NCBI GenBank assembly: GCA_945859605.1
Contig: OX243814.1
Coordinates: 40,571,269 to 40,635,268, forward strand
Direction: 5' to 3'
Source of the DNA: Lumbricus rubellus
Lineage: Eukaryota; Annelida; Clitellata; Crassiclitellata; Lumbricidae
Length of the DNA stretch: 64,000 nucleotides
The notes under the pieces are model-generated. The model worked only from the letters and a program-made list of their open reading frames with translations. It was not told the DNA's origin and made no database searches. Position numbers and translations under genes: made by a program. Positions within the stretch are counted from its first letter, which is position 1. Every line of letters starts with the position of its first letter. Below, in pieces: positions 10,587 to 60,106 of this stretch.

Positions 10587-10865
10587 GGTACACAGAACCT
10601 TCATGTCCACTGAATCGTGCTCCAGTAAATGATGATAAAGATTGGTCTGACTGGTCATCGAAAGAAACTAATCTCACAGACTGGTGTAACAATACGCTCT
10701 TGGATGGTGAAAATGGTGTGGAAAAGATGAAGGGTCGCCTGTATTCTGTCGATGCACTTGTCAAAGGTCATTTAGACCCGTCTTTCACTTCATCGGCATG
10801 CACTTCTCGTAGACAAGGACTCGAATCAGTCGAGGCTACTCATGTTGCAAAGGTGGTTGTGCCAG
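10587..10865 (+). CDS. Exon A1: diverged V-like Ig exon
   Basis: This 93-codon exon follows the acceptor TTTGTGTATTTAG and ends before GTAATT, phase 1 on both sides. It aligns end to end with the A4 and A5 exons: conserved L-N-R-A..V start, G-x-L..S-V-D-A, E-A-T-H-V-A-K-V-V-V-P-G end. The B-strand Cys of the L-N-C motif is replaced (W-S-D-W-S), and the F-strand G-C-D-S has become G-L-E-S, so the canonical Ig disulfide is absent. A D-W-C-N-N Cys sits where the C-strand Trp region was. It could be a decaying exon or a remodelled domain; the intact ORF and splice sites leave both possible. Downstream intron sequence is also homologous to that after A2. Confidence 0.6.
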
Positions 10866-11268
10866 GTAATTACTCGAGCATAATTCAGATTGCCATCTTT
10901 GGGTATAAACTCATAGGGCCTACAAATGGTTAAACACTTGGATTTTATCTAATGTTTCATAACGTAGTGAAAGGTAAAAGTTCAATTGAACTGCTAAACA
11001 TCAAGGCCTACCAAAGAATTTTGGATACTGGCCTTGTAGTGCAACCTTAGAGAGCAAAGATTGAACGATATAATATTTGGCACAGAACTAAAATGGCGTG
11101 CATTCAGTTCATGAACCTGTTCAAGAATACAGTAACCTTCAACTCACTTTCATTGAGGAGCATTTCTAATACCAATAGTTGCAAACGATACATTTCACTG
11201 GTGCTCATGCCGTATAGGTGATTGTATTAGGTATCACTAGGCAATTATGTGCGGATTTATGTTTCTAG

Positions 11269-11547
11269 GGTTCAGTCTTGCAGAATCATCATGTCTACTG
11301 AATCGATCTCCAATAAATGATGATAAAGATTGGTTTGACTGGTCATCCGAAAAAACTAATCTCCCAGACTGGTGTAACAATATGCTCTTGGATGGCAAAA
11401 CTGTTGCGGAAAAGATGAAGGTGTACTCTGTCGATGCACCTGTCAGAGGTCATTTAGACCCGTCTTTCACTTCATTCGAAAGGACCTCTCTTAGATACGG
11501 GTTCGGATCCGTCAAGACTACTCATATTGCAGAGGTGGCTGTGCTAG
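11269..11547 (+). CDS. Exon A2: diverged V-like Ig exon, tandem duplicate of A1
   Basis: The exon lies between the acceptor TTTATGTTTCTAG and the donor GTAAGG, phase 1-1, 279 bp, exactly the length of A1. It shares K-D-W-x-D-W-S-S, D-W-C-N-N and G-H-L-D-P-S-F-T-S with A1. Flanking intron (GATTGCCATCTTTG..GTATAAACTCATA) also matches, so the ~690-bp unit of exon plus intron was duplicated. Both canonical cysteines are missing (G-F-G-S at the F strand). Confidence 0.6.
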
Positions 11548-11802
11548 GTAAGGGTTTAAGCATTGAGCATATTTCAGATTGCCATCTTTGTGTATAAACT
11601 CATACGGCCTACAGATCGTTAGCAGCTGAGATTTTATCTAATGTTTTACAATGTAACGAAAGATAAAATGTTCAATTGAACTGCTGAACATGCCAAAGCA
11701 TTCCTGATACTGGTCTTGTAGTGCAACATTGGATTGTGAAGGTTCACCGATATAATTGGCAGAGAAACAAAATGGCATGTATTCAGTTTATTAATCTGTT
11801 AA

Positions 11803-11865
11803 CCCTTTAATGCCGGAGGGTGTAGAATTTTCGATACTATTTACTACCATCTCGGCATTAAAGGG
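11803..11865. mobile_element. 63-bp piggyBac-like miniature element
   Basis: TTAA (11799-11802), then CCCTTTAATGCCG, ending CGGCATTAAAGGG, then TTAA (11866-11869). Perfect 13-bp ends beginning CCCT and flanked by TTAA are the hallmark of piggyBac insertions. There is no room for coding sequence. Confidence 0.75.
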
Positions 11866-12027
11866 TTAAATAATACGGTAACCTTTTATTCACACTTTTT
11901 GAGGAACACTTCTTGTACTGAGCAATTCGGACGAAGCAGTGTCACTGGTGCTCACACGTACTGCTTAGGTCATTGTATTGGGTGTTACTAGATAATTATA
12001 TGCTCATTGTATTAGGTAATTAATTAT

Positions 12028-12149
12028 GTTTTCTTATACCGAAGATGAAGATGCAAACCAGCTATGGACAAAGATGAAAACTGTAATCCAGGATGCTGCA
12101 GAGAAGCATGTCCCAAAGAAAACAGCAAGTAAAACTACTCCATGGCTAT
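12028..12149 (+). pseudogene. RTE-like LINE, 5' piece upstream of a hAT-like insertion
   Basis: The frame 12029-12148 encodes ..N-Q-L-W-T-K-M-K-T-V-I-Q-D-A-A-E-K-H-V-P-K-K and T-P-W-L, the linker between endonuclease and RT in RTE-like LINEs. The next codons of the same element resume at 14341 (W-L-S-K-E-A-I-K). The LINE was therefore one piece until the 12150-14340 element inserted. It is 5'-truncated near 12028. Confidence 0.75.
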
Positions 12150-16214: not shown

Positions 16215-16221
16215 CTAGATG

Positions 16222-16520: not shown

Positions 16521-16610
16521 ATCGTTATAATTATTATTATTTAGAAAAGAAGCTGCACTTCCCTGTGAAGATCTATGTACACACTTAGCAGGATGACAAT
16601 GAAGCTGGTA

Positions 16611-18166: not shown

Positions 18167-18439
18167 GGTACAGTCTTGAAGAACCTTTGAGTTCACTAAA
18201 TGATACTGCAGTAAAAGGTGATAAAGATCGACTTGACTGTACGTCGGAAGAAGCTAATCGTCCTGGCTGGTGTTATGATGCACCATTGGATGGCGAATGT
18301 GTTACGGAAAACATGAGGAGTCGATTGAACTCTGTCGATGAACCTGCTGAAGGTCATTTTGACCAGTTTTTCACTTCACCGGAAATCACTTCTTGTAGAC
18401 ATGTCGAGGCTACTCTTACTGCAGAGCGGGCTGTGTTAG
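18167..18439 (+). CDS. Exon A3: diverged V-like Ig exon
   Basis: The exon lies between the acceptor GTGTGTTTCTAG and the donor GTAAGC, phase 1-1, 91 codons. It aligns with A1 and A2 and with A4/A5 (V-K-G-D-K-D start, S-V-D-E-P-A-E-G-H-F, A-V-L-G end). The first Ig Cys is kept (R-L-D-C), the C-strand reads G-W-C-Y-D, and the F-strand region is shortened so that the second Cys appears as T-S-C-R-H. It is intermediate between the canonical A4/A5 exons and the Cys-less A1/A2. No B-like exon was found after it. Confidence 0.55.
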
Positions 18440-19715: not shown

Positions 19716-19719
19716 TGAA

Positions 19720-22539: not shown

Positions 22540-23331
22540 CCTTGAACCAGCCAGCCATAGAGTTTAATTCACTGTTCAACAGCTGATAGACACTACATGT
22601 TTTCATAGGATTTATGTGAAATGAATGCATTCGTAATTTAGAATATTTTTTATTATCAGCCATGTGCTAATCGCCTATACAATGAAGCGTGTTGCATTTC
22701 CGGACCGTTCGTTCATTACATGAGTTTATCCGCCTTAGGAGATGAGTAAAATCAATGTTGAGCTAATAAACACGATTGATATAGTCTTGGACTTTCTCCA
22801 AATAGGCCTACACTAGATCTTTAGAATTAAACGATTTAAATTTAACACAGTCATTTCTGTATAATTAAAACTGGTAACAACTAACAAGGTGCAGTTTCCA
22901 GTGAAAGCGTGACTCTAATTCGCATTCACCTTTCGTTTACTTTGAAAATCAGTGTCAATTAATAGAAACCTTCATTTTAATTAGTTAAAGAGATCCATCG
23001 GTTAAGCGAACTAAAGCCATTAGGCACCGGCTCATATTATGACTCTACCACTGTAGGCTCATATTATACTCTACCACTTACTTTCATAATCTTATTTACA
23101 GCATGACAGTAAAAAACCTTCTCGATGTCAAGTATTGACTTTAATTGTGCCTCCTGCAAGAGTGACCTTCCTCAAGCATAGACATTATTTTCTTTAACTT
23201 TATGGTATAGGGCCTTCTACTAGTACTCACGATATTTGAATGCCCTGTCATGGCGACCGTTGCATTAAATTGTTTGTGATGTTAAATAGCATATTTAACT
23301 GGGGATTGTAGGTCTATTATTGTATTTATAG
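22540..23331. other. Gene-free stretch
   Basis: Probable intron or intergenic DNA. A short duplication of GGCTCATATTATGACTCTACCACT lies near 23030-23070. No exon is supported. Confidence 0.35.
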
Positions 23332-23597
23332 GAATAATGATATTGCTGACCTTGTCAATTATTGGGACGGTGAAGTCAACAAAACAAATCGGAAGCACGA
23401 GCAAAGGAAACTTTAGACGTGAGAACTTTGGCTGTCCTACGGTTAAGGGAGTGCGTCACTCGTCAGTTCATTGCATCACCAAGTCGTCCAATGCTATTTC
23501 TGTGTCAAATCGCAACATTCTGGGGAGTCGCCTGCTGCCATGGATCGCCTTCATTGTCTGCTGCATTGGTATGAACACAATAATTACTAGTGTGTAG
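23332..23597 (+). CDS. Candidate terminal exon with hydrophobic C-tail
   Basis: An open frame follows a possible acceptor (TGTATTTATAG, 23321-23331) in phase 1, the phase used throughout the locus, and ends with TAG at 23595-23597. The last ~25 residues include S-R-L-L-P-W-I-A-F-I-V-C-C-I-G-M, resembling the hydrophobic tail of the 59997-60106 exon (L-L-Q-L-F-L-A-F-I-A-A-Y). A shorter version could start at 23467 after CGTCAG, also phase 1. If real it would close an upstream gene that used A1-A3. An alternative reading is a chance ORF, or a first exon with a signal peptide (M-I-L-L-T-L-S-I-I-G). Confidence 0.35.
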
Positions 23598-24614: not shown

Positions 24615-24944
24615 CTGTGCTTCCTGAATCCGTCAATGGGTATGTAATCACGGAGTCTGGTTTTAAGATTGTTTCAATTGGAGACAGCGTTGAGTTGGAA
24701 TGCATCTTCAATTCATCCCGTCCACTCGAATGGTATTTTACACCTTATGGTAACAATGAAAGTGAAATTGTCAGTGATGGCAGCAAAGCGGATTCAAACG
24801 ATTCAAATGTATACAGCATAGTTCGTGAGGAGTCTGGCCATGTTCATCTTATTATTGATCCTGTGGGCAAAGAACATGCTGGAGGATACGAATGCCGTGA
24901 TGCAGGTGAAACCTACAAGCTTACCATGGAGGTGACCGTTCTGA
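24615..24944 (+). CDS. Exon C1: immunoglobulin domain
   Basis: This 110-codon exon lies between TTGTTGTCAACAG and GTAAGT, phase 1-1. It encodes a full Ig fold: B-strand V-E-L-E-C, C-strand Trp in L-E-W-Y-F-T-P, E-strand V-H-L-I-I-D, F-strand E-H-A-G-G-Y-E-C, and a G-strand M-E-V-T-V-L. N-glycosylation sequons N-S-S, N-E-S and N-D-S are visible. It pairs with exon C2 (same length, about half the residues identical by eye). The E-H-A-G-x-Y-x-C motif makes the Ig call secure; V-set versus I-set is uncertain. It is the first exon of module 1. Confidence 0.88.
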
Positions 24945-26999: not shown

Positions 27000-27412
27000 A
27001 TAAAAATACGCTTGCTTAAATTGGAACTGGATTGATGAAAAAACGCTCATGAAATGGAAACTAGATAATGGTATTTTTATATCTGAATAGAAGCTGGATT
27101 AATGAATAGAATGCTTGGTAAATGGAAGCTGGATTGATGAATTTCATTCATGTATTTCAACATGCATCCAGCTTCCATTTCTCAAGCGCTTTATCATTAA
27201 TCTGGCTTTCATTTCTCAAGCGTTATTTTTATCAATTCAGGTTCTATTTCACCTATAAGGAACCTTCATCCACCTTCCATTCACCATTTGCCGGTGAGCT
27301 AATAATATCGTAGTAGGCCTATACCAATTGTCGTGAACCAGCTGTCGGTGAACGATTTGTCCGTGAGCCAGTTGTCGTTGTACCAGTTGTCGGTGAACCA
27401 GTTGTCGTGACA
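27000..27412. mobile_element. Foldback-type repeat element, copy 3
   Basis: It has GAACTGGATTGATGAAAAAACGC phrases, then ATCCAGCTTCCATTTCTCAAGC in the opposite sense, and a right end (27337-27412) iterating CCAGTTGTCGGTGAACC words and closing GTTGTCGTGACACC. It lies immediately 5' of the CR1-like LINE. Confidence 0.75.
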
Positions 27413-27714
27413 CCGTTACGGTCTGCTGCCTTAAGCTAACAAAAAAACTGTGGCTATGGATAGCTGTGGTTAAATTCTCAATCTTTTATTAAGGACCCCT
27501 GGTTTGGAATAGTTTATCTCGTAACATTCGAATTTTATCAGCTTTCACCCAATCACTAAATCGTTTTTCAAAGTCTATGATTCTAACTTTTCGATTAGAA
27601 GTTGACCGATATTTTTGTTTTCGTGTTTGGAGTTTATAATTCGATATTGGATTATTTTTCGACTCTTCTGAAGGATTATTTTTGCGTGGTTTTGTTGCGA
27701 GTTTGTAACGTACC

Positions 27715-29319
27715 ATGTCTGCGCCTTCTGTGTACACCATTGTTTACACCGCTGACCTAATTAGGTCGTTAAATACAAGCTTGTCGCCGCCTCGTCGGTT
27801 GACCCGTAAGACATTGTTCAGCCTTGGACTATGGCGCCCGGCCTATCTTCGGTCTCTTCCGTGCCCGTCTTCGGCTTCTAGTCGTTCGGAGCCCTGCTCG
27901 GAGCCCTGCCGACCTCCGCCTTCGCCTTCGTCGGTCATTCGTCTAGCTACCCTGAATGTACGTTCTATAAAACATAAATACGTGCCGACGGCGGACATGA
28001 TCACGTCCAATGACTTGGATGTTTTGGTCGTGACCGAGTCATGGCATGTTTCTTCCTCTGATGTTGCTGTTCGTCGTGCTGCTCCGCCTGGCTTCCAGTT
28101 CATCGATCGTCCGAGGGATTGTCCGAGGGCAGACGACACCGGTGATGCCGTCCAGGGAGGAGGTGGGATGATCGTCTACCACCGCAATCAGCTGAGGGCG
28201 AAGAGGATCGAGTTGGACAGGACCCCGTCGACCTTCGAGGCCCTCGCGGTCTCCCTGTCATCCAAGCGGGGTCCAACTACGCTCCTGGCCATCTACCGCC
28301 CCGGTTCATCACCTCCGTCGTCGACGTTCTTCGAAGAGCTCTTGGCTCTACTGGAACAATTTGCGCTTCACAACACGCAGCTGGTTCTCACCGGGGACCT
28401 CAATCTACACCTAGAGGACCCGTCGCTCTCGGAATCCATGCATTTTGCGGCGGTTATGGAACAGTTCGGACTCAAGCAGCATGTCGCTGAACCCACTCAC
28501 TTGCTGGGTGGGTGGCTCGACGTCATGGTCACAAGAGATGACTGTCGGGTGTCAGATGTGACCGTCTTTCCTCCTGTTCTCTCCGACCACGGTCTCGTCG
28601 TCGCGTCAATACCATTCATCTACGAACCTCTTCTCCTCGCTGCTCGTCAGATCTGTCAATGGAAAAGCCTTGACCGTTCTGCATTCCGCTCAGCGATACG
28701 GGCTCATCCCCTCTTCGCTGATCTTCAGTCATCTGCCGATCTCTCTACGTCAGAGCTGTTCAGCTCTTACGAGACAGCGTTGTCTGGTCTCCTAGACGCC
28801 TTTCTACCTGTACGCAACGTCCAGTCGCGCTACCGCCCGTCTTCTCCGTGGTTTGACGCAGAATGCCGGAGGCTCCGACGGCAGGCAAGAAGACTCGAGA
28901 GAATCTGGATGAGAACACGTTCTCCTGCTGATCGGGCCTCGTGGGTCCGGTTCGTAAGAGAAATGCACACGTCGTACCGTACCAGAGAACGTGAATACTG
29001 GGAGACCATCATCACTCGCCAGTCTAAGGAGCCGAAGAGACTCTGGACCACTTTCAACGGCCTACTTGGTCGTTCGAGGGGTGGTCGTCAGTCGGAGTCT
29101 CCTCCGTCGTTCTCTGCGGAAGTGTTCTTGCAACGATTCTCCGCCAAGATTTCTTCCATTCGGAGTTCCACCGACGAATCGCCACCGCCTACGTTCTCTA
29201 CCACCGAGCATCTGCACTCCAGGAGATTTCGAGCAAGGAGCTGCGTCGACTCATCCTCTCCTCTGCCGCCAAGACGTGTGAGCTGGATCCTGCACCGACA
29301 TTTCTCGTTCAGGAACTAA
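27715..29319 (+). CDS. CR1/L2-like LINE ORF: AP-endonuclease domain and RT N-terminus
   Basis: This 534-codon frame carries the exonuclease-endonuclease-phosphatase fold of LINE endonucleases: L-A-T-L-N-V-R-S-I near residue 77, V-V-T-E-S-W near 105, G-G-G-M-I-V-Y-H-R near 150, T-G-D-L-N-L-H-L-E near 227, L-D-V-M-V-T near 264, and S-D-H-G-L-V near 291. The domain nicks target DNA to prime reverse transcription. The frame runs into the pre-RT linker and shifts near 29280. Confidence 0.88.
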   Translation: MSAPSVYTIVYTADLIRSLNTSLSPPRRLTRKTLFSLGLWRPAYLRSLPCPSSASSRSEPCSEPCRPPPSPSSVIRLATLNVRSIKHKYVPTADMITSNDLDVLVVTESWHVSSSDVAVRRAAPPGFQFIDRPRDCPRADDTGDAVQGGGGMIVYHRNQLRAKRIELDRTPSTFEALAVSLSSKRGPTTLLAIYRPGSSPPSSTFFEELLALLEQFALHNTQLVLTGDLNLHLEDPSLSESMHFAAVMEQFGLKQHVAEPTHLLGGWLDVMVTRDDCRVSDVTVFPPVLSDHGLVVASIPFIYEPLLLAARQICQWKSLDRSAFRSAIRAHPLFADLQSSADLSTSELFSSYETALSGLLDAFLPVRNVQSRYRPSSPWFDAECRRLRRQARRLERIWMRTRSPADRASWVRFVREMHTSYRTREREYWETIITRQSKEPKRLWTTFNGLLGRSRGGRQSESPPSFSAEVFLQRFSAKISSIRSSTDESPPPTFSTTEHLHSRRFRARSCVDSSSPLPPRRVSWILHRHFSFRN

Positions 29320-30801
29320 TCGAGGATCTACTTCCCTTCCTTACTCTTCTATGCAACAGTTCGATCCGTGAGACGTGCCTACCCGCCTCGCAGAAACGTT
29401 CTGTTATCCTCCCCGTACTGAAGCGCGATGGTCTCGATCAAAGCGATCCTGCTAACTATCGCCCTATTGCAAATGTTACCTTTTTATCTAAATTACTAGA
29501 ACGCATTATTGCCAATCAGCTAATTACCTACTTGGATGCAAATGATTTTGATTCCGTCGCAGTAGTCGGGTTTCCGTCGGAATCATTCCACGGAGACTCT
29601 ACTGCTTCGACTTTTGTCAGACTTCTATAGCGCAGTTGACCGGGGTCAAGTCACTCTCCTTGCTCTTTTTGATGTAAGCTCTGCCTTCGACTCTGTGGAC
29701 CACTCAATTCTCTTGCAGCGCCTCTCCACTTCTTTCGGCTTAGTGGACCAGCCTCTTGACTGGCTCACATCCTTCTTAACTGACCGCTCTAACTGTGTAG
29801 TTCTTGGGTCGTCCAGGTCTGCTTGGGTCCCTGCCCCTCTCGGGGTGCCCCAGGGTTCCGTTTTGGGCCTGCTGCTCTATCTTCTCTATACTGCTGACAT
29901 CTGCTCCTTACTGACATCTCAGGGCCTTCTGCACCAGCTATTTGCCGATGATGTGCAAGCCTACATCCATACCTACTCGGTTGATGCGGTGGCCGCTGTC
30001 AACCAGATGTGTAGAAATATGGATGTCCTCTCTCTTTGGATGGCCTCCAATCGGCTACTCTTAAACCCCTCCAAAACGCAATTTATTTGGTTGGGTGGCC
30101 GTAGACAACTCCAGGGGTATTGACCTTTCCCAACTTGCTCTGCTCTTTCCTCATATCACCTTTTCCCTCACAGTTCGTGATCTAGGTCTCACCCTCGATT
30201 CTGAACTTACTCTGTCCCAGCATGTGAACTTGGTTGCGAGGAGTGCCTATTACCAGCTTCGTCAGCTCCGGGTGGTCTCCCGTTCTCTCTCTCACGATGC
30301 GGTCGTCGTCCTTGTCCACGCCTTTGTTACAAGTCGAATTGACAACTGTTGTTCCTTACTTGTTGGTCTTCCCCTTGGGGTCCTGGGGCGACTTGATCGC
30401 GTCTTATTGGGCGGCTTCCTAAATTTGCGCCTGTCTCTGCCTATATGCGTGATGTGCTGCACTGGCTGCCTGTGTCCCAGCGAATCTCATACCGCATTGC
30501 TGCTGTGGTCTCTCGCTGTGTCCTTGGCTGTGCTCCGTCATACTTGCGTGATCTGTGCTGTCCAGTCTCTGACGTTGCAGCGCGTCGTGTACTTCGCTCT
30601 TCGTCTAAAGGTGAGCTTCTGGTCCCGCGGGCTCGCTTGGCTATTAAGCAGCGCCGTGCTTTCTCGGTCATGGGGCCTACTGTCTGGAATGACCTCCCGG
30701 TCCCGCTTCGCTCACTACTTGTGGTCCATCCGGCTGCGTTCTACAAGTCCCTCAAGTCTTTTTTCTTTGTTCGTGGTTGGGCTGGGAGCGCCTCTGAGTA
30801 G
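29280..30801 (+). pseudogene. CR1/L2-like LINE reverse transcriptase with frameshifts
   Basis: The RT continues through at least four frame changes (near 29280, 29560-29610, 30110 and 30400). Blocks seen are A-N-Y-R-P-I-A-N-V near 29455, L-F-D-V-S-S-A-F-D near 29670, V-P-Q-G-S-V-L-G near 29845, F-A-D-D-V-Q-A-Y near 29942 (YADD with Phe first) and the G-S-A-S-E end at 30799. It is parallel to the intact frame at 805-2266. Confidence 0.85.
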
Positions 30802-31395: not shown

Positions 31396-31559
31396 ATCCA
31401 TATCCGGTTTGCGAGAAGAGTCCAGAGTCTTCGTCGGTTGTCTGCCGTTTGCACTACGACGGAAATAAAAAGCCGAACTTTAAATGGGTGGATTCTGGAA
31501 ACACTACCTTCTGCAACGAATCCGGTACCAGCATTACATCCACATTTGAATACTCTTGA
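31396..31559 (+). CDS. Exon D1: truncated Ig-like exon
   Basis: It follows the acceptor ATGTTTAG in phase 1 and starts D-P-Y-P-V-C, matching the D-P-Q-P-T-C start of the B exons. It has V-V-C as B-strand and F-K-W as C-strand, then stops at 31557-31559, so the second half of the fold is missing. A possible phase-1 donor, G|GTACC, after 31524 would end the exon before the stop at 129 bp; exon D2 has the same option at the same codon. It is either a short half-domain exon, a premature end, or a pseudo-exon that can be skipped without changing frame. Confidence 0.55.
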
Positions 31560-31957: not shown

Positions 31958-32135
31958 AGAAGCTGGATTGACGAAAACAACGTTTGAGAAATGGAAGCTG
32001 GATGAAGGTTCTCTGTAGGTGAAATGGAAGCTGGATGAAGGTTCTCTAGAGGTGAAATGGAAGCTGGATGAAGGTTCTCTGTAGGTGAAATAGAAGCTGG
32101 ATTGACGAAAACAACGCTTAAGAAATGGAAGCTAA
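31958..32135. mobile_element. Foldback-family interior fragment
   Basis: GGAAGCTGGATGAAGGTTCTC repeats three times at ~42-bp spacing, with GAAGCTGGATTGACGAAAAC on either side. The iterated ends are missing. Confidence 0.7.
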
Positions 32136-33376: not shown

Positions 33377-33451
33377 CAATCGGATCACTACGTATCACAA
33401 GCTACAACAGTTCTTTTGAGCGTCGGCGATGCAACCCCAACAAAGACGAGG
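33377..33451 (+). CDS. Exon E1: short linker exon
   Basis: This 25-codon exon lies between TATGTTCCTTCAG and GTAAGT, phase 1-1. It encodes roughly A-I-G-S-L-R-I-T-S-Y with a single Cys near the end (R-R-R-C-N-P-N). It aligns with exon E2 (T-I-G-S-V-R-M-T-D-Y, also one Cys). It always sits between D and A exons. The lone Cys could form an inter-chain or inter-domain bond. Confidence 0.6.
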
Positions 33452-37519: not shown

Positions 37520-37816
37520 GGCATAGTCGTAAAACACTTTCCATTCCGATGAATTGGGCTGGAGTGAAAGGAGAGCAAGTTCGGTTGAACTGCTCAAAGC
37601 AAAAGGACCATACTGGATTTTGGTTTCGCAATGTACCTCAGTCTGCCGACGAGATCCTAATATATCACAGGAAGATTGTTACAACTGGCTTGTTTTCAGT
37701 CAATAACTCTCTTCCCGGACGTTCTGATTTGGTATTTTTTTCATTGGAAAGCACTTCTGGGAGGTTTGGATGTGATTCAGTCGAATCTACTCATACTGCA
37801 GAGGTTGTTGTATTGG
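37520..37816 (+). CDS. Exon A4: V-like immunoglobulin domain
   Basis: This 99-codon exon lies between TGTTTATCTTAG and GTAAGT, phase 1-1. Ig landmarks: G-E-Q-V-R-L-N-C (B strand), F-W-F-R-N-V (C strand Trp), I-L-I-Y-H-R (C'), G-R-S-D-L-V-F-F (D/E strands), and S-G-R-F-G-C-D-S (F strand Cys), ending T-A-E-V-V-V-L. It is the same length as A5 with the same Cys spacing. The intron after it shares GTTTCACAGTGTTTCACA with the intron after A5. It is followed 451 bp later by exon B1, giving an A-B two-domain unit like V-C pairs in Ig receptors. Confidence 0.85.
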
Positions 37817-38267: not shown

Positions 38268-38588
38268 ATCCGCAACCTACTTGTTCAAAGCAAACAAAGA
38301 ATGGTGTCGTGAATGTGAGCTGCAGTATTGGCTTCAGTGGAAACTGGCCTCCTGTGTTAGAGTGGACCGACTCAACTGGAAAACTAAAGACAATTGAAGC
38401 ACCGACGATTTTGAGCCATAGAGTGACTAGTTCTCTGAATGTGCCACAAAATAAAGATGTCCTCCATGATCTTCATTCTTTTGCATGCTCAGTGAGCTTC
38501 AAGGAAGACGACAAGCCATCGAAATCAACAGCATTGAACACTCCTGAAATATTTCTTAAGTCCTGCAAGATTATTATAGAAGAATCAG
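38268..38588 (+). CDS. Exon B1: C-set-like immunoglobulin domain
   Basis: This 107-codon exon lies between TTCTCGTTTCCAG and GTTAGT, phase 1-1. It begins D-P-Q-P-T-C; the B strand V-N-V-S-C-S-I-G-F, C strand P-V-L-E-W, E strand V-T-S-S-L-N-V and F strand S-F-A-C-S-V form an Ig fold. Two extra cysteines (T-C near the start and K-S-C near the end) could pair with each other. About half the residues match B2 by eye. Confidence 0.82.
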
Positions 38589-38982
38589 GTTAGTTTTTTG
38601 TTTAACGACTGCTATGAAATATTATGGTTCATTAGCTATTGCTCTTTGGGTAAATTGAAATTACCTGCACATCATCCACAAAATATGCGATTGCAAATCT
38701 TCTTCAGCATCTTAATTGTGCTAACCTTTTGGATGGTTTCGATATTAGTTTTTCCTGCTAAGATACTTTATTAGCATTCTCTTTTATTGAGTTTTGGTGT
38801 GGTTCAAATCTCCACTCTGTATACAATTTCTTTTATTCTTTTATATAAGTTTCTTTCCCGTTTCCTACCTTGGCCACTTGCTCTAATGCCAAGTTCCTTC
38901 TTGCCTTTCTGTGCACCTTGTTTCCTCTCTGAGTCTCTTCACTCTCCCATCTTTCTTCTATGCATTTCATCTTTTTTTCGGT

Positions 38983-39568
38983 TCCACGACAACTGGTCTA
39001 CCGACAACTCGTCTAACGACAACTCGTCTCCGGACAATTGGTCTAACGACAACTGGCCTACAGACGAATAATATTGATGAAATAGAAGCTGGATTTATGA
39101 AAATGGGTTTTTAGCCTAAATGGAAGCTGGATTGATGATTTTAATTCATGTATTTCAACATGCACCCATTTCTACTTCAAATCTAAAAACACCTTCATCC
39201 AGCTTCTGTTTCTCGCCTGTTATTTTAGTCAATCCAGCTTCTATTTCAAATATAAAAATACCATCATCCAGCTTCCATTACTTAAGCGATTTTCTTATCA
39301 ATCCAGCTTCTATTTGAGATCTAGAAATACCTTCATACAGCTTTTATTTATCATGCGTTATTTTCGTCAATCCAGCTTCTAGTTCACCTGTAAAAGAACC
39401 ATCATCCAGATTCCATTTCTCTCACGTTTTTTCATCAATCCAACATTCACTTCACCTCTAAAAACTGTCATCCAGCTTCCATTTCTCAAGCGCTGGATCA
39501 GTTGTCAGTAGACCAGTTGTCGTTAGACGAATTGTCCGGAGACCACTTGTCGGTAGACGAGTTGTCAC
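38983..39568 (+). mobile_element. Foldback-type repeat element, copy 2 (complete)
   Basis: The left end (38983-39066) iterates CGACAACT(G/C)GTCTA and the right end (39505-39568) the complement. The interior has about five ~70-bp dimers of two GAAGCTGGAT phrases in reverse sense. It is an inverted copy of 1-535 and the most complete copy here. Confidence 0.85.
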
Positions 39569-40973: not shown

Positions 40974-42179
40974 CACCGTGAGTCCAAAAAAACTAAGCCA
41001 AATTGTTTTTCATATATCTCTAATGCCCGATAACATATCACGCCAAAATTTTCCAAATATTTAGAGACGTGGACCAAGAATATGATTCCAAAATTTCAAA
41101 ACATAAACTTGAACGGACGAAAAGATATGAATCTTTCAACTTCATATGCCGAAATTGCGGTTTACAAGCAATTTTCTGCCAGATTCAATAAAAAGTAAGC
41201 TAAACGGTTTTTCTTATATCTCCAATGCCTGATAATTAATCTTACCATAATTTTCCAGATTTTTAGAGGATTGAATCAGGAATGGGATTCCAAAATATCA
41301 TGTCTTAAATGTGAACGGATAGAAAGATAAAAATATTTAAACTTCAGCTCCAGAAATTTCTGTTTTCAGGAAGTCTGCTATGGTGCTAGTTGCGGTTTTG
41401 ATGCTTGATAGTTCCCAATTTTGGTCTTCAGGGATCCTGGAGTAAAATTAACGGAGTATATTATCGCAATGTTCTGCTGTCACAACATCTTCCACCTGTT
41501 ATCAGAAATCCATAGCCCCAGAAGGCGGTTTTCTTTTTCAACAGAACAGCGCCAGCCCACAGAGCCAGGGAAACCATCGAAATGCTGACAAGAGAGACGC
41601 CAGACTTCATTTTCCCCACATTATGGCCTCCGAACAGCCCATATTTGAATCCTGTCGACCATAAAGTGTGGAGCGTGATGCAAGACCGAGTCTACCAGAC
41701 AACAATCCATGATATAAACGATCTGAAGCAACCAACGCTTGTTGGAAGTGTTGGAAGACCTGGACCAGAGGATAATTGTTGCGTAATGCATGGCGCTAGC
41801 GCTTCCAGGCTTGGGTGCAAGCAGGAGGAGGACATTTTGAGCATCTTAATTACAAATAACAAAACCATACTGTTGGAATCATATTGTTAGTTCAATTCTC
41901 TACATATCTGGAAAATTTTAGATTGATTACTCATCAGGCACTAGAGATATAAGGAAACATTTTATTGAATGCAACAGAAAATTGCTTGTGAACTGAAAAT
42001 TCGGTATATGAAGTTTAAATATTCATATCTTTTTATCCGTTCAACTTTACCTCAGGAAATTTTGGAGTCATATTCTTGGTCCACTTCTCTAAATATTTGG
42101 AAAAGTTTAGCGTGATATGTTATCAGGCATTAGAGATATATGAAAAACAATTTGGCTTAGTTTTTTTTGACTCACGGTG
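40974..42179 (+). mobile_element. Tc1/mariner-type element with long inverted repeats
   Basis: The element begins CACCGTGAG, ends CTCACGGTG and is bounded by TA dinucleotides (40972-40973, 42180-42181), the Tc1/mariner target. About 200 bp at each end are inverted repeats, and further inward blocks also invert. Total 1206 bp. It contains a transposase remnant (next entry). Confidence 0.85.
41540..41870 (+). pseudogene. Mariner-type transposase catalytic-core remnant
   Basis: About 100 codons, with a one-base shift near 41560, encode F-Q-Q-N-S-A, then P-A-H-R-A-R-E-T-I-E-M-L, L-W-P-P-N-S-P-Y-L-N-P-V-D and V-W-S-V-M-Q-D-R-V-Y-Q. In the family the first box normally has Asp at the N of QQNS and the second has Asp at the Y of SPYL. 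Both are changed, so the core is dead. The N-terminal DNA-binding part is absent. Confidence 0.85.
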
Positions 42180-45036: not shown

Positions 45037-45366
45037 CTGTGTTTTCTGATTCCGTCAATGGGAATTTACAAACGGAGTCTCGTTATATGATCGTTTTACT
45101 GGGAGACAAAGTTAAGTTCAACTGCTCCATTAATCCATCCAGTCAATCCGAGTGGTATTTTACACCTCATGGTAGCAATGCCAGTAAATATATCAATAGC
45201 AGCAGCCAAACAGATTCAGGTGATCCAGATGCATTCGAAATAGTGAGTGAAGACTCCGGCCTTACTACACTGGTAATTGGCAATGTGCTTACAGAGCACG
45301 CTGGAAGATACGACTGCATCGACTCAATGGAAAAGTACATGCTCTCCGTGGAGGTGACCGTTGTGG
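45037..45366 (+). CDS. Exon C2: immunoglobulin domain
   Basis: A 110-codon exon between TTGTTGTCAACAG (identical to the C1 acceptor) and GTAAGG, phase 1-1. B strand V-K-F-N-C, C strand S-E-W-Y-F-T-P, E strand T-T-L-V-I-G, F strand E-H-A-G-R-Y-D-C, G strand V-E-V-T-V-V. N-A-S and N-S-S sequons. It opens module 2. Length and splice sites match C1, but the sequence has diverged through the B-C loop and middle strands. Confidence 0.88.
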
Positions 45367-46379: not shown

Positions 46380-46525
46380 ATCCAAATCCTCTTTGCGATT
46401 ACAATCGGGAATTTTCGTCAATTGACTGTGCTTTTTACTACGCTGGAAATAGCATACCCGACTTCATGTGGTTGACATCGGAAAACATTACCTTCTGCAA
46501 TGAATTTGGTACCGATATAATTTAA
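46380..46525 (+). CDS. Exon D2: truncated Ig-like exon
   Basis: It follows the acceptor GTGTTTATAG in phase 1 and starts D-P-N-P-L-C; B strand I-D-C-A-F, C strand F-M-W, then an in-frame stop at 46523-46525. G|GTACC after 46508 gives the same 129-bp option as in D1. Downstream, the remains of the second half of an Ig domain can be traced in broken frame (Q-I-Y-C-S near 46606), so the ancestral exon was probably full length. Confidence 0.5.
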
Positions 46526-47862: not shown

Positions 47863-47952
47863 TCAATGATTCTTCAACCATTGGATCAGTACGTATGACA
47901 GACTACAAAAACCCTTCTGAACGTTGTCGACATGCGCCTCAAGAAGATGACC
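47863..47952 (+). CDS. Exon E2: short linker exon with shifted acceptor
   Basis: A 30-codon exon between TTATAATGACAG and GTAAGT, phase 1-1. It encodes N-D-S-S-T-I-G-S-V-R-M-T-D-Y with one Cys (R-C-R-H). At the position equivalent to the E1 acceptor the AG has become AA, but an AG 15 nt upstream restores a usable site in the same phase, adding five residues. Confidence 0.55.
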
Positions 47953-49014: not shown

Positions 49015-49311
49015 AGCATAGTCCTGAAAAAACTCACAGTCCACTGAATCATGCTACAGTGAAAGGTGAACGAATTCGGTTGAACTGCTCAACACAGAAT
49101 GACGACACTCGATACTGGTTTCGTCATGTACCTCAGTCTGCCGATTCAGTTCTAATATACCATAAGACACTGAAAAGAAATAACCAATTTTTAGTCGATC
49201 AAGATGTTCCAGGACGTTTTGACCTGTTATTCATTTCATCGGAAAATACTTCTGGTGGATATGGATGTGATTCGGTCGGCGGCTCTTATACTGCAGAGGT
49301 GGTTATGCTAG
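49015..49311 (+). CDS. Exon A5: V-like immunoglobulin domain
   Basis: A 99-codon exon between TTTGTGTTTTGTAG and GTAAGT, phase 1-1. Landmarks: G-E-R-I-R-L-N-C, Y-W-F-R-H-V-P-Q-S-A-D-S, V-L-I-Y-H-K, G-R-F-D-L-L-F-I, S-G-G-Y-G-C-D-S, and T-A-E-V-V-M-L. N-T-S is a glycosylation sequon. Same length as A4. It lies 270 bp before exon B2. Confidence 0.87.
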
Positions 49312-49581: not shown

Positions 49582-49899
49582 ATCAGCAACCTAGTTGTTC
49601 AGGTGCAAAAAAGGGTGGTTTTGTGAATGTAAGCTGCAGCACTGGCTTCAGTGGAAACTGGCCTCCTGTGATAGAATGGTTCGACCCAGCCGGATTGATT
49701 AAAGATAATCATAAAATGACAACTACCAGCGATCGAGTGACCAGTTTTCTGACGTTGGAATTGACTGGCGATCCCAAAGAACTCTTTTTTGTAAACTGCT
49801 CGGTAAAGTTCAATATAGAGGATAAACCATGGGGAACAACAGCGACAAACGTTCCAAAAATGGTTCGTAGCACCTGCGGGGTTACAATAGATGCATCAG
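49582..49899 (+). CDS. Exon B2: C-set-like immunoglobulin domain
   Basis: A 106-codon exon between TTGTTAATTTCAG and GTTAGA, phase 1-1. It starts D-Q-Q-P-S-C; B strand V-N-V-S-C-S-T-G-F-S-G-N-W, C strand V-I-E-W-F, E strand V-T-S-F-L-T-L, F strand F-V-N-C-S-V, and a final Cys in S-T-C-G. The V-S-C-S..F-S-G-N-W-P-P-V block is the best-conserved stretch with B1. Confidence 0.83.
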
Positions 49900-56125: not shown

Positions 56126-56146
56126 GAATGGCTGCTGAAGAAGCAG
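56126..56146 (+). CDS. Stalk micro-exon I
   Basis: A 7-codon exon between TTCGTTTTTTGCAG and GTAGAT, phase 1-1, encoding G/M-A-A-E-E-A. Good polypyrimidine tract, but a 21-nt exon cannot be proven by sequence alone. Confidence 0.35.
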
Positions 56147-56232
56147 GTAGATCTATTATTATCACATGTTTCATGCACCTATGCAAACACTTACCAAGCT
56201 AGAAACTCTATCTCAAACCGTAGGCTCTGTGC

Positions 56233-56631: not shown

Positions 56632-56639
56632 CTCTATGC

Positions 56640-57560
56640 ACGCACAAGGACATTTGTAACTATTTTAAATTAGATTAATTGGGACCTGTGTATGAAACTC
56701 CATTCCAAATGCTGAGGACTTCATTCTCCTTCATGGGCTAGAGAGTTTCAGATGTAAATTGATCATGATAGCCACTGAACTGCTGCCGAACCGATAACAC
56801 CAGATGTAATGCTTTTACAATCTACAACTCTCAGTTGCTCTTACCATGACTGTGGGCTCAAACGTTTGTAGTAGTTAAGTTGCCTATAGTAATTAAGAAT
56901 AATTATTGTATTTGTTCATTGCTACAGTCCAGTTCATTTGGTTCAGTCCAGTTGGTTGTACCCCAATGTTTTAACTTATCTAAGTTCATTTAGATACGAT
57001 TTGTTTAGTACATTATTACCGGATATTACTGTCCGTCCTCTATAATTTCGTTATTATTTTTTTAGCTAAGAATCAGGAGTCTCCGGTTAGCGGAGACTCC
57101 TGATTCCTATCCTACTCCTATTTCCTCATGGTCCCTGAATTCACTTGTAGATAGTACTGCTGTCACATTATGAAGAAATATTGAAACATTTATATAACGC
57201 CAAATGTAGGCCTACATCTCTCCTACACAACAGCTACAGATCACTGCATTTGTTTGTTCTTGGCATCTCGTCTAATGTTGAGTGTAAAATTTCTAAAGCA
57301 CATCCACATAAAAATTAGTGGTCTTCCATAACTAACGAAAAGAAAAATTATTATTCAATGGATAGTATATAGCTTCAATTTATTGAATTAAATTAAATGC
57401 AAGATCATTAGACTATGTATGTAGGTACGTCTATTGAAATAATAGCAGTTGATGTTTGCTTTAAAGTGATACCGAACTCAGCGGAATTTTGACTATAGGC
57501 CTATCTGCGAAATCTTTGAAAATTGACAGAGGGCAATTTCATTTTTTATTTTAGAAAGTT
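56640..57560. other. Intron sequence with a 16-bp perfect hairpin
   Basis: 57070-57085 and 57091-57106 are exact complements around GTTAG (arms GAATCAGGAGTCTCCG). Otherwise no exon or element is seen. Confidence 0.6.
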
Positions 57561-57720
57561 TTATATAACGCTTTTTCAATGTAGGCTACTCATAGGCGCT
57601 ACCCGCCCATCCACGGCTAAATAGGGCAGTTTTGATATTTTTAAGGAACAGAGTGGAGTGGCCTCTGCATGGGCGGCAAAACTCCGAACGGCGGTCCCAA
57701 ATTATAACATTAGGTAAATC
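57561..57720 (-). pseudogene. CR1-like LINE 3' end, minus strand
   Basis: On the minus strand the frames encode I-I-W-D-R-R-S-E-F-C-R-P, then L-K-N-I-K-T-A-L-F-S-R-G-W-A-G-S-A-Y-E-stop, parallel to the G-W-T-G-S-A-S-E end of copy 1. This is followed by AAAGCGTTATATAAA. The GAAT tail is missing. Confidence 0.75.
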
Positions 57721-57794
57721 AACATGACGTGTCGTAATAGTGCGGTGTATTGGATGGGCACATAGAAACGGTTTCTTTTGCACTCCACACTTAT

Positions 57795-58265
57795 AAAACG
57801 ACCAGCTGGTCCACCGAAATAGAAGCCGGAATAATGAGAAAGCACTTGAGAAATGGAAGCTGGATGAAGACCTTTTACGGGTAAATGAAGGTGGATTGAT
57901 GAAAAAACGCAAGTGAAATATAAGCTGGATGAGGGTATTTTTAGATCGGAAATAGAAGCTGGATTGATGAATTGAACGGTTGAGAAATAGAACCTGGATG
58001 ATGGACATAATAAGTTAAATGGAAGATAGATTAATTAAAATGCTTACGAAACGGATGCTGGATGAAGGGTCCTTATAGGTGAAATATGAACTGGATTGAC
58101 GAAAATTAAACTTGTGAAATGGAAACTGGATTGTTGATTTCAGTGATGTATTTCAGCATGCATCCAGCTTCCATTTCAGCTGGAATGCCGTTTATCCAGC
58201 TTTCTTGTATCAAGCGTCCATCAATCACATGGTTTTCATCAATCCACCTTCTATTTCACCACAAA
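57795..58265. mobile_element. Foldback-type repeat element, copy 4
   Basis: GACCAGCTGGTCCACCGAAATAGAAGC at the start, GAAGCTGGATGAAG and GGATTGATGAAAAAACGC phrases, then inverted CATCCAGCTTCCATTTC after 58158. The iterated ends are reduced. Confidence 0.7.
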
Positions 58266-58299
58266 TCATGTTTAAAGGCTTCTCAGGACTCAGGAGATA

Positions 58300-58690
58300 G
58301 CCTATCGATTTATTTAATTTTATCATTTGGGACCGCCGTTCCCAGTTGTTGTGTGACAATTATAACATTAGACGATATAGACTATAGGCTATGTTTTAAT
58401 TTGGGACCGCCGTTCGGAGTTTTGCCCTCTGGGCAATAAGCGCAGTGTAACACTAACAGGAGGCTTTCCAGGTTCTTTTCGGGCCAGCAACCGATAATGA
58501 ACGGCCTGTCGGATAGCAGTCCGCGAGCGGGTAACCGGAAGCTGATCAGCTTTTTCCGCCGACCAAAGGGTGGATACACGCGGTACACCCGAGGTAGAAC
58601 AATGGCGCTCTGGCAGATGCAGGTAAACGGAGCCAAAGCAAGACACCCCGCATACAAATTGATCGGGTATTACGACCCATTCGACGGTGT
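58300..58690. other. G/C-rich segment of unknown origin
   Basis: 58325-58450 has two pieces resembling the TTTGGGACCGCCGTTC stretch of the nearby CR1 remnant. 58450-58690 is G/C-rich with open frames on both strands (58497-58690 plus: R-K-L-I-S-F-F-R-R-P-K-G-G-Y-T-R). I do not recognise the protein. It abuts the next foldback copy. Confidence 0.4.
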
Positions 58691-59752
58691 CACGACAACT
58701 CGTCCAACGACAACTCGTCCAACGACAACTCGTCCACTGAAATAGAAGCCGGATTAACGAGAAAGCGCTTGAAAAAAGGAAGCTGGATGAAAGTTCTTTA
58801 TTTACGAAATAGGAGCTGGGTTTATGAAAAAAAGTCTAATGGTTTTCTTGCTTAAATAGAAGCTGAATTGACGATTTTGATCATGTGTCTCAACATGCAT
58901 CCAGCTTCTATTTCAGATAGAAAAAAAATTTGATCCATCTTCCGTTTCTTAAGCGGTTTTTCATCAATCCAGCTTCTAATTCACCTGCTACTACCAGCTT
59001 CGGCAACTCCGAGTTGTCTCAAGATCTCTCTCTCATAGTGCTACTCTGACACTTGTCCATGCCTTTGTCACCAGTAGAATTGATCACTGCAGTTCGGTAC
59101 TCATGGGTCTGCCACTTGGACTAATTGGGCGCCTTGAACGAGTTCTTCGTTCGGCTGCTCGCCTCATTGGCCGCATTCCTAAATATGCCCCCGTCTCTGC
59201 TTATATGCGTGATGTTCTTCACTGGCTCCCTGTTTCACAGCGCATCTCCTACCGAGTTGCTGCACTTGTCTGGCGTTGCCTTACTGATTGTGCTCCATCA
59301 TACCTGTTTATTCTTTGTCGACCTGTCTCTGACCTTGCAGCCCGTCGAGCTCTTCGCTCTACGACAACGGGGGAGCTTTTGGTTCCTCGAGCTCGCACTT
59401 CTACAAGACAGCGCCGAGCCTTTTCTTCTGTGGGTCCCGCTATCTGGAATGGCCTCCCACTAAACTTGCGACTTATGCCTAGACTAAATTCACCTGCTTT
59501 TTATAAGTCGCTCAAAACCTATTATTTTAGCTGTGGCTGGACTGGGAGCGCCTCTGAGTAGTTTCTTGAAGAAGCGCTATATAAATTCACGAAATGAATG
59601 AATGAATGAATGTAAAAACCTTCATCCAGCTTCCATTTCTCATGCGTTTTCTCATTAATCCGGCTTCTATTTCAGTGGACGAGTTGTCGGTTGACCAGTT
59701 GTCCGTGAACGAGTTGTCGTTGGACGAGTTGTCTGTGGACGAGTTGTCGTGG
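58691..59752. mobile_element. Foldback-type repeat element, copy 5, split by a CR1 insertion
   Basis: The left end (58691-58737) iterates CGACAACTCGTCCAA three times; the right end (59676-59752) has about five inverted copies. The interior phrases are interrupted at TTCACCTG|TAAAAACC by a CR1 3' fragment. Removing 58986-59611 restores the TTCACCTGTAAAA sequence seen in copy 2 near 39390. Confidence 0.85.
58986..59611 (+). mobile_element. CR1-like LINE, 3' fragment nested in foldback copy 5
   Basis: It matches 1691-2317 with only a handful of differences by eye (for example 1826 region and one in the ..Y-L-S/F-I.. codon). It encodes the RT C-terminus, with frame 59103-59561 ending G-S-A-S-E, and closes with a GAAT tail. 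It is a young, severely 5'-truncated insertion with little or no target duplication. Confidence 0.88.
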
Positions 59753-59996
59753 TTACCCACTTCTACGAAGTAGTGGAAACTTTCTTCACAGAACCTGGAA
59801 CCTATATAGGACTAGTATTCCCATACAACCCAGAGTCCTAACCAATCCTGGGGAAACTCGTTTTCATTGTTCACAATACAATGGTCATATAATATAGGCT
59901 ACAACCATTGTATTGTATTATTCTATTGTATTCTTTGTATTCAAATTATTCTCTGTGATGATTAGCTCCTATTGCTTATTTGTGTCGCCCATTTAG
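59753..59996. other. Intron end before the terminal exon
   Basis: A short imperfect hairpin (ACAATACAATGG / ACCATTGTATTGT) near 59873-59920; otherwise plain sequence leading to the acceptor. Confidence 0.4.
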
Positions 59997-60106
59997 CTCC
60001 GACAGATAAGCCGAAGACCAGCACCGGTAGCGGCCAAGGAAGTTTCGCCCTTCTCCAGCTATTCCTCGCCTTCATCGCAGCTTACGTTGGCATCAGCCAA
60101 TTCTAA
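59997..60106 (+). CDS. Terminal exon J: GPI-attachment signal and stop
   Basis: It follows the acceptor TCGCCCATTTAG in phase 1 and ends with TAA at 60104-60106. It encodes a Lys/Thr/Ser/Gly-rich stretch (T-D-K-P-K-T-S-T-G-S-G) followed by ~17 mostly hydrophobic residues (F-A-L-L-Q-L-F-L-A-F-I-A-A-Y) and I-S-Q-F-stop, with no charged cytoplasmic tail. Small residues before a hydrophobic C-terminus are the hallmark of GPI-anchor signals. The mature protein would be tethered to the outer membrane leaflet. A short transmembrane helix without tail is the alternative. Confidence 0.78.

What the first reader, a model, noticed from the sequence alone, without database searches (positions are those of the whole stretch)
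10587..60106. A large modular Ig-superfamily locus encoding a probable GPI-anchored surface protein
Seen: nine or more Ig-like exons in five families, small linker exons and a terminal exon with a GPI-type tail, all on the plus strand. Known: Ig arrays on GPI anchors act in adhesion and recognition, and several invertebrate immune and allorecognition loci use expanded Ig exons. Inferred: this is a receptor family of that kind. I cannot name a described family that matches the C-D-E-A-B-F order.
Basis: partly seen in the sequence, partly recalled or inferred. Interest (0 to 1): 0.9.

Follow-up and report, generated by a model that had tools for sequence, protein, structure and literature searches.

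The report
Earthworm GPI-anchored immunoglobulin-domain receptor locus
This stretch of earthworm chromosome 4 carries the exons of a cell-surface protein built from repeated pairs of immunoglobulin domains with a lipid (GPI) anchor signal, one member of a large related gene family that could include the unknown receptors earthworms use to recognise other cells.

Summary
The window is Lumbricus rubellus chromosome 4, 40.57-40.64 Mb. It has two tandem plus-strand blocks of exons C-D-E-A-B, then one terminal exon F. Ten inner exons are open, with AG/GT borders and symmetric 1-1 phase. C and A are V-set Ig domains, B a C2-like Ig domain. D resembles the first part of B, so D-E is more likely a split, shortened B-type domain than a linker, and each block reads V-C2-V-C2. 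F ends in a GPI-type signal; related exons occur at five other chromosome 4 places, one with a stop. A1-A3 are open V-derived exons lacking the Ig cysteine pair.

The locus is one of many: V-to-B exon pairs recur on several chromosomes, and the listed V-set exons are concentrated on chromosome 4. Some relatives end in a transmembrane exon instead. No fibrinogen domain, convincing recombination signal, signal-peptide exon or transcript evidence was found.

Best reading: a germline-encoded GPI-anchored recognition or adhesion receptor, probably one gene of two V-C2-V-C2 blocks. A role in immunity or graft recognition is untested. The listings of eight literature searches showed no description of this family; an oligochaete paper lists "novel immunoglobulin V-set proteins". 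New variant of a known kind.

The parts
10587..10865 (+). A1: diverged V-derived exon, 279 nt, phase 1-1, open, no Ig cysteine pair
   Evidence: A-family profile E 1.4e-4; borders; only relatives in the genome search are A2, A3, weakly A4, A5 and a C8 place at E 0.35 (query A2)
11269..11547 (+). A2: diverged V-derived exon, 279 nt, phase 1-1, open
   Evidence: profile E 9e-8; DNA alignment with A1 at 79% over 566 columns; borders
18167..18439 (+). A3: diverged V-derived exon, 273 nt, phase 1-1, open
   Evidence: profile E 9e-6; borders
24615..24944 (+). C1: V-set Ig exon, block 1
   Evidence: Pfam V-set E 2.4e-6, over the family cut-off; borders
31396..31524 (+). D1: probable first half of split B-type Ig domain, block 1
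   Evidence: B profile E 0.001 in window scan; D1 16.2 bits, D1+E1 17.9 bits against a best of 9.1 in 1000 shuffles; borders
33377..33451 (+). E1: probable second half of that domain, block 1
   Evidence: conserved with E2, phase 1-1; adds only 1.7 bits to the D1 match
37520..37816 (+). A4: V-type Ig exon, block 1
   Evidence: A-family profile matches Ig V domains of PDB chains at best E 2.4e-10; no Pfam hit alone; borders
38268..38588 (+). B1: C2-like Ig exon with the GNWxPxxEW motif, block 1
   Evidence: 47% identity to B2; borders; no Pfam hit alone; B family Pfam Ig_3 down to E 2.3e-5
45037..45366 (+). C2: V-set Ig exon, block 2
   Evidence: Pfam V-set E 1.6e-7, over the family cut-off; borders
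46380..46508 (+). D2: probable first half of split B-type Ig domain, block 2
   Evidence: B profile E 0.017; D2 13.2 bits, D2+E2 14.5 bits; borders
47863..47952 (+). E2: probable second half of that domain, block 2
   Evidence: conserved with E1, phase 1-1; adds only 1.3 bits to the D2 match
49015..49311 (+). A5: V-type Ig exon, block 2
   Evidence: 55% identity to A4; Pfam V-set E 0.0035 alone, below the cut-off; borders
49582..49899 (+). B2: C2-like Ig exon, block 2
   Evidence: predicted structure pLDDT 71.9; Foldseek best E 0.011, none at 0.001 or below, shown rows are antibody, T-cell receptor, PD-L1, MHC and other Ig-containing entries
59997..60106 (+). F: terminal exon with Ser/Thr/Gly stalk and C-terminal hydrophobic tail (GPI-anchor signal type)
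   Evidence: DNA relatives at five other chromosome 4 places, one with an in-frame stop (four of the five also by protein)
60031..60659 (+). tandem triplication (210-base unit) of the tail part of F and following sequence; copies 2 and 3 keep the tail frame and an in-frame AG, so they may be alternative ends or 3' untranslated repeats
23290..23418 (+). weak candidate transmembrane exon between A3 and C1; may be chance
   Evidence: strongest of 4 sense hits at 3 places in the window, 0 antisense; its donor is in phase 0, unlike the other exons
38792..38932 (+). two overlapping terminal-exon-like hits just behind B1; most likely chance, but they would suit a separate end for block 1
   Evidence: that scan has no specificity (26 sense against 22 antisense hits)

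Best explanation
The locus encodes a germline-fixed, GPI-anchored Ig-superfamily receptor or adhesion protein of the earthworm Lumbricus rubellus. Its ectodomain is built from repeated V-C2 pairs: C with split D-E, then A with B, the set of four duplicated in tandem. All inner exons have phase 1-1, so whole domains can be duplicated, lost or skipped without breaking the frame; tandem duplication of exons and genes has made a large family in which the same V-C2 ectodomain type is joined either to a GPI signal (here) or to a transmembrane exon (relatives). Inferred steps: the outer V domains bind a protein ligand on another cell; the GPI form works as a ligand, adhesion molecule or co-receptor, while transmembrane relatives may signal. 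Shown: exon anatomy, Ig identity of C, A and B, family and clustering, the two tail types. Inferred: D-E as one domain, splicing into one mRNA, surface display, binding, and any role in immunity or recognition of foreign tissue.
For: Exon borders, phases and open frames. V-set identity of C and of the A family. Ig identity of B. D resembles the start of B. GPI-type tail in paralogues. V exon upstream of B on the same strand within the 1.5 kb flank in 21 of 28 non-window B loci, and B downstream in 5 of 8 V-set loci. 65 of 149 listed V-set hits on chromosome 4. Transmembrane exons in related loci, 0 antisense. No F-like exon and no transmembrane exon with a consensus donor between B1 and C2, which favours one gene.
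Against: No transcript evidence. No signal-peptide exon found in the window (two sense hits against three antisense, neither convincing); the 19.9 kb upstream was scanned for Ig exons only, nothing below E 0.05. At the 39.10 Mb relative an A-B pair is followed by a transmembrane exon within 0.4 kb, and two terminal-exon-like hits lie just behind B1, though in a scan without specificity: the two blocks could be two genes. A weak transmembrane candidate with a non-consensus donor lies at 43.8 kb. E adds little to the D match. A1-A3 have lost the Ig cysteine pair. dN/dS near 1 in C and B is compatible with relaxed constraint. LINE fragments and a mariner-like piece lie in the introns.
Confidence: 0.7

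Rival explanations
1. Two tandem genes: gene 1 = C1-D1-E1-A4-B1 with its own, unrecognised tail; gene 2 = C2-D2-E2-A5-B2-F.
For: The two blocks have the same order and 68-72% DNA identity. At 39.10 Mb an A-B pair is followed by a transmembrane exon, with the next C-D about 13.5 kb downstream. Two terminal-exon-like hits lie at 38.8-38.9 kb behind B1 (scan without specificity).
Against: No F-like exon and no transmembrane exon with a consensus donor lies in the 6.4 kb between B1 and C2. BLAST at E <= 1e-5 shows no conserved segment upstream of C1 and C2 that would mark a second first exon.
Confidence: 0.35
2. A decaying or pseudogenised locus: exon relics in a transposon-rich region, not expressed.
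For: A1-A3 lost the Ig cysteines and have dN/dS near 1. One paralogous GPI exon has an in-frame stop. LINE and mariner fragments in introns. No signal-peptide exon found.
Against: All 13 inner exons are open with AG/GT borders; about 11 stops expected under neutral drift of the five-exon set, none seen. A4/A5 dN/dS 0.45 (95% 0.25-0.82).
Confidence: 0.12
3. Combinatorial exon choice: symmetric exons (A1-A3, A4, A5, the tripled F tail) are alternatively spliced in the style of arthropod Dscam, giving many isoforms of one receptor.
For: All inner exons are 1-1 phase, so any subset keeps the frame. A1-A3 are homologous exons; a genome search with A2 found, beyond them, only A4, A5 and one place at E 0.35. 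Three tail copies each keep frame and an in-frame AG.
Against: Phase 1-1 is the usual state of Ig exons (general knowledge). A1-A3 lost the canonical cysteines. No RNA evidence.
Confidence: 0.1
4. A somatically rearranging or mutating antigen receptor.
For: V-set domains with profile similarity to antibody and T-cell-receptor V domains.
Against: Every V exon ends in an ordinary splice donor. RSS-like patterns in the window: 0 for the 12-spacer and 2 for the 23-spacer form, chance mean 0.78 and 0.71; neither of the two adjoins an exon.
Confidence: 0.01

Closest known systems
Hydractinia Alr family (allorecognition complex)
   Same: Clustered, expanded invertebrate IgSF genes with V-set domains (PMC11067881 and PMC11999971, passages).
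   Different: Alr1 and Alr2 are described there as single-pass transmembrane proteins, with V-set and I-set domains; here V-C2 pairs, a C2-like domain with its own motif, a GPI tail, an annelid, no allorecognition data.
Novel immunoglobulin V-set proteins of the oligochaete Olavius algarvensis
   Same: A clitellate annelid; V-set proteins listed under pattern recognition proteins, 9 transcripts and 1 protein (PMC5117596, Table 1 passage).
   Different: No architecture or sequence was compared here; relation unknown.
Vertebrate CEACAM/PSG, CD48/CD58 and B7/butyrophilin families (recalled)
   Same: V-C2 type ectodomains in duplicating families, some with GPI and transmembrane members; the best TM-score of the B2 model among the rows shown is to PD-L1 (0.66, E 0.055).
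   Different: No orthology shown; sequence similarity is at Ig-fold level only.
Gastropod FREPs
   Same: Expanded Ig-bearing family in a lophotrochozoan; this genome also has a large fibrinogen-domain expansion.
   Different: No fibrinogen hit in the window in the capped genome list nor among the 26 window frames given to Pfam; listed clusters lie mainly on C6 and C7.
Arthropod Dscam (recalled)
   Same: Tandem homologous Ig exons in one locus.
   Different: No FNIII match among the 26 window frames scanned (114 frames of 80 aa or more exist), GPI instead of transmembrane, no evidence of alternative splicing.

Membership tests
Immunoglobulin superfamily (V-set) | V-set domain with the conserved Cys-Trp-Cys core | tested here: met
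   C1, C2 over the Pfam cut-off; A-family profile to PDB V domains E 2.4e-10, with Cys, Trp, Cys invariant in the ten A-family exons. A1-A3 fail the cysteine pair.
GPI-anchored proteins | C-terminal hydrophobic tail without cytoplasmic part, small residues before it | tested here: met
   F exon sequence and conserved paralogues; no GPI predictor was run
GPI-anchored proteins | N-terminal signal peptide and biochemical GPI attachment | tested here: inconclusive
   No signal exon found in the window; attachment not testable here
Alr allorecognition family | single-pass transmembrane anchor | tested here: not met
   GPI-type end here; transmembrane ends only in relatives
Alr allorecognition family | alleles decide fusion or rejection | not testable with these tools
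   no polymorphism or graft data
FREP | Ig domain plus C-terminal fibrinogen domain | tested here: not met
   No fibrinogen hit in the window in a list of 151 matches that is capped (890 candidates, 150 scored; nearest listed at C4:41.33 Mb, minus strand); none among the 26 window frames given to Pfam
Rearranging antigen receptor | RSS-flanked gene segments | tested here: not met
   at chance level and not at exons
Dscam-type hypervariable receptor | mutually exclusive splicing of Ig exon arrays | not testable with these tools
   no RNA data

The most novel reading that the evidence does not exclude
Chromosome 4 of the earthworm carries an annelid recognition complex: dozens or more of V-C2 Ig exon pairs whose genes pair GPI-anchored and transmembrane versions of the same ectodomain, with frame-neutral exons open to combinatorial splicing; this would be the molecular basis of earthworm allograft rejection.
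Probability: 0.1. Interest if true: 0.88.

Novelty: new variant of a known kind. Interest (0 to 1): 0.55.

Why it matters
Earthworms reject grafts with accelerated second responses (PMC2248247, passages), and none of the passages I read names the receptors. A clustered, expanded V-C2 Ig family with both GPI and transmembrane members, placed on chromosome 4 of a species with a public genome, alternate haplotype and RNA reads (PMC11015115), gives concrete candidates that can be tested for polymorphism and for expression in coelomocytes.

Tried and rejected
Fibrinogen link (FREP): rejected, no fibrinogen hit in the window in a capped list nor among 26 window frames given to Pfam. RSS: rejected. 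My first argument, that B runs into C in one transcript because no F lies between them at the 39.10 Mb relative, was withdrawn when a transmembrane exon was found right after B there. D and E as linkers: replaced by a split B-type domain, with the caution that E adds only 1.7 and 1.3 bits. Echinoderm or hemichordate origin: rejected because mitochondrial AAA reads Lys and ATA reads Met at conserved COX1 positions (positions recalled); gene order nad3-nad2-cox1-cox2-atp8-cox3 pointed to an annelid (gene names assigned by eye and the annelid order recalled). Positive selection: not significant; NG86 C1/C2 1.01 (0.64-1.78), B1/B2 0.92 (0.54-1.59), YN00 1.47 and 1.31; 15 exon pairs with over 68% DNA identity, one of them the window's own A4/A5, range 0.22-2.21, highest bootstrap support for a value over 1 being 0.87. 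Structure of A5: unusable, pLDDT 39. Homologues in the 5.8-billion protein set: none at E <= 0.001. Cytoplasmic ITIM-like exons behind transmembrane exons: none found by a simple scan of four stretches, with none antisense either, so the scan may be too strict. Signal-peptide scan: none under strict rules, two sense against three antisense hits under looser rules, one of the sense hits judged by eye to be part of a LINE. Terminal-exon scan: 26 sense against 22 antisense hits, so no specificity beyond F itself. Nine of the 30 extracted B-family exons were left out by hand before the B alignment.
Full report
Where it is. The genome that holds the window has 787,420,884 bases in 368 contigs and the window is contig 4, 40,571,269-40,635,268. 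Its mitochondrial contig is 15,811 bp, reads AAA as Lys and ATA as Met at conserved COX1 positions (positions recalled), and shows the order nad3-nad2-cox1-cox2-atp8-cox3 (gene names assigned by eye). The Lumbricus rubellus assembly wcLumRube1.1 has 787.5 Mb, an mt genome of 15.81 kb and chromosome lengths that match the contigs: chromosome 4 is 53.92 Mb and contig 4 is 53,922,266 bp; 62.94, 56.54, 49.32, 36.88, 34.73, 33.68 and 29.72 Mb also match (PMC11015115, outline and section 5; contig lengths). The published total is 110 kb and 12 scaffolds larger, so the held copy is probably a filtered or later version. The window and the 19.9 kb upstream contain no N.

Anatomy. BLAST of the window against itself shows two tandem blocks on the plus strand with the same order, C-D-E-A-B, at 24.6-38.6 kb and 45.0-49.9 kb, at 68-72% identity. 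The aligned parts end within 25 bases of the exon borders for C, D and B and run further for E and A. Ten inner exons have AG before, GT after, lengths divisible by three and phase 1-1; I placed the borders by eye with the frame in view. A1, A2 and A3 at 10.6, 11.3 and 18.2 kb have the same form but lack the Ig cysteine pair. F at 59,997-60,106 ends the reading frame with a Ser/Thr/Gly stalk and a 20-residue hydrophobic tail up to the stop, the form of a GPI signal; no GPI predictor was run. The last part of F is repeated three times in tandem in a 210-base unit; copies 2 and 3 keep the frame and an in-frame AG.

What the domains are. C1 and C2 match Pfam V-set over its cut-off (E 2.4e-6 and 1.6e-7). 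A4 has no Pfam match alone and A5 a weak one, but a profile of ten A-family exons matches antibody and T-cell-receptor V domains in the PDB (best E 2.4e-10), and 5 of 10 members match V-set in Pfam at E <= 0.01. The B family (21 sequences aligned; 9 of the 30 extracted were left out by hand) has the consensus C...GNWxP..EW...C...ATNxP, with one Cys, one Gly, two Pro and one Trp invariant. 5 of 21 members match Ig_3 at E <= 0.01, best 2.3e-5; the PDB profile search gives titin, SYG-2 and JAM at E 3e-4 to 0.02. A model of B2 from two sequences has pLDDT 71.9. Its Foldseek matches have best E 0.011, none at 0.001 or below; the 50 rows shown are, as far as the titles tell, antibody, T-cell-receptor, PD-L1, MHC and similar Ig-containing entries, with TM-score up to 0.66 to PD-L1. 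The A5 model failed (pLDDT 39). D matches the first third of the B profile: D1 16.2 and D2 13.2 bits alone, 17.9 and 14.5 with E joined, against a best of 9.1 in 1000 shuffles of D-E. E thus adds little; that D-E is one shortened B-type domain cut by a phase-1 intron rests on D, on the frame and on the position. On that reading each block is V-C2-V-C2. As one chain A1 to F would be about 1085 residues without signal peptide.

Selection. Under random substitution to the observed divergence about 11 stops are expected in the five exons C-D-E-A-B; none is present and 0 of 2000 runs gave none. dN/dS (NG86, bootstrap 95%) is 0.45 (0.25-0.82) for A4/A5, 0.40 (0.13-1.16) for D, but 1.01 (0.64-1.78) for C and 0.92 (0.54-1.59) for B; A1/A2 1.18 (0.60-3.77). 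YN00 gives 0.35, 0.19, 1.47 and 1.31 for A4/A5, D, C and B. Among 15 exon pairs with over 68% DNA identity (one of them A4/A5) the value ranges from 0.22 to 2.21, with bootstrap support for a value over 1 at most 0.87. This says protein-coding and fast-evolving in parts; it does not prove positive selection.

The family. Whole-genome searches found 34 places for B2, 10 for A5 and 14 for C2 at E <= 0.001, the window's own included. For all 40 A and B loci examined a phase-1 acceptor and donor could be placed, partly by construction since the script asked for that phase. Around B loci (1.5 kb flanks), a V exon lies upstream on the same strand in 21 of 28 loci outside the window, and B lies downstream in 5 of 8 V-set loci, so V-C2 exon pairs are a common building unit. 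Of the 149 V-set hits listed (731 candidates, 150 scored), 65 are on chromosome 4 (10.2 expected by length) and 27 form one cluster at C18:3.85-4.73 Mb, all on the minus strand. As a contrast, the 150 listed Ig_3 hits (2116 candidates, 150 scored) are spread over most chromosomes, with 8 on chromosome 4 by my count by eye and none at 36-51 Mb. C-D pairs also occur at 39.09 Mb and, as a weak hit (D at E 0.91), near 50.18 Mb. The stretch fetched at 39.09 Mb holds some N, so an E exon there may be hidden.

Two kinds of tail. F-like GPI exons lie at five other chromosome 4 places (39.97, 40.55, 40.74, 40.79 and 51.98 Mb), the one at 40.79 Mb with an in-frame stop; the protein search recovers four of the five. 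A scan of 44 loci for a phase-1 acceptor, a hydrophobic stretch and a consensus donor gave 13 sense hits at six distinct places and 0 antisense; at 39.10 Mb the transmembrane exon follows B by about 0.4 kb. Thus the same V-C2 ectodomain type carries either a GPI or a transmembrane end in different genes. ITIM-like exons behind four such transmembrane exons were not found, by a scan that found none antisense either.

One gene or two. Between B1 and C2 (6.4 kb) there is no F-like exon and no transmembrane exon with a consensus donor; one weak candidate with another donor lies at 43.8 kb, and two terminal-exon-like hits lie at 38.8-38.9 kb, in a scan that gave 26 sense against 22 antisense hits. 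On balance this favours a single gene C1-to-F. The 39.10 Mb relative, where B is followed by a transmembrane exon and another C-D lies about 13.5 kb downstream, shows that neighbouring units can be separate genes. I hold one gene as more likely, about 55 to 35. No signal-peptide exon was found in the window. The 19.9 kb upstream begins with the end of the neighbouring GPI exon and shows no Ig exon below E 0.05; it was not scanned for signal peptides.

Rivals excluded or weakened. No fibrinogen domain in the window in the listed genome hits (capped) nor among the 26 window frames given to Pfam, of 114 of 80 residues or more; listed clusters are mainly on C6 and C7, the nearest listed at C4:41.33 Mb. 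RSS-like patterns are at chance level and not at exons. No homologue in the 5.8-billion protein set, which probably reflects the scarcity of animals in that set (my inference).

Literature. Ten full-text searches were made; two served to name the species. The listings of the other eight showed no description of an annelid V-C2 or GPI Ig family. Searches returned nothing, and searches listed 25 of 736, 20 of 475 and 20 of 41 papers, so this is weak evidence of absence. Seen in passages: earthworm and leech graft rejection with accelerated rejection (PMC2248247); Hydractinia Alr as a clustered IgSF family with transmembrane Alr1 and Alr2 (PMC11067881; PMC11999971); "novel immunoglobulin V-set proteins", 9 transcripts, in Olavius algarvensis (PMC5117596 Table 1). 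PMC4172062 was read in passages and added nothing specific. The 2022 paper on the Alr family was not held. Comparisons with CEACAM, B7/butyrophilin, CD48/CD58 and Dscam rest on recall.

Verdict. A real, probably functional GPI-type Ig receptor locus of a large earthworm V-C2 family. It works like other IgSF recognition or adhesion families; it is not a member of Alr, FREP or rearranging receptors by the tests made. Its function remains to be tested.

Noticed in passing
755-2266, 27709-29319, 29566-30123, 58980-59561: LINE pieces: reverse transcriptase frames, an endonuclease frame, and a piece at 58986-59612 that is 99.7% identical to 1691-2317, so a recent copy.
   Followed up: partly
41516-41890: Mariner-like DDE transposase fragment (PF13358, E 1.4e-4, below the family cut-off; 'mariner' is my reading).
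   Followed up: partly
467-529, 8240-8343, 27323-27410, 38986-39065, 39499-39567, 58692-58736, 59675-59749: Dispersed 15-base minisatellites of related sequence, often near a 33/69-base repeat (40-362, 31988-32102, 39170-39492), on both strands.
   Followed up: no
61886-62392: 17-copy tandem array of a 30-base unit, 90% match, downstream of F.
   Followed up: no
G000 C18:3845774-4730707: 27 of the 149 listed V-set hits in 0.88 Mb, all on the minus strand: a large tandem Ig cluster.
   Followed up: partly
G000 C6 and C7: Large fibrinogen-domain expansion, dense at C7:20.6-23.8 Mb and C6:32.2-36.5 Mb among the listed hits.
   Followed up: no
L075 (G000 C4 about 50.18 Mb, minus strand): Compact relative with a V exon, a C2-like exon, a small exon and a transmembrane exon within about 2.6 kb (exons read by eye; transmembrane exon).
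   Followed up: partly
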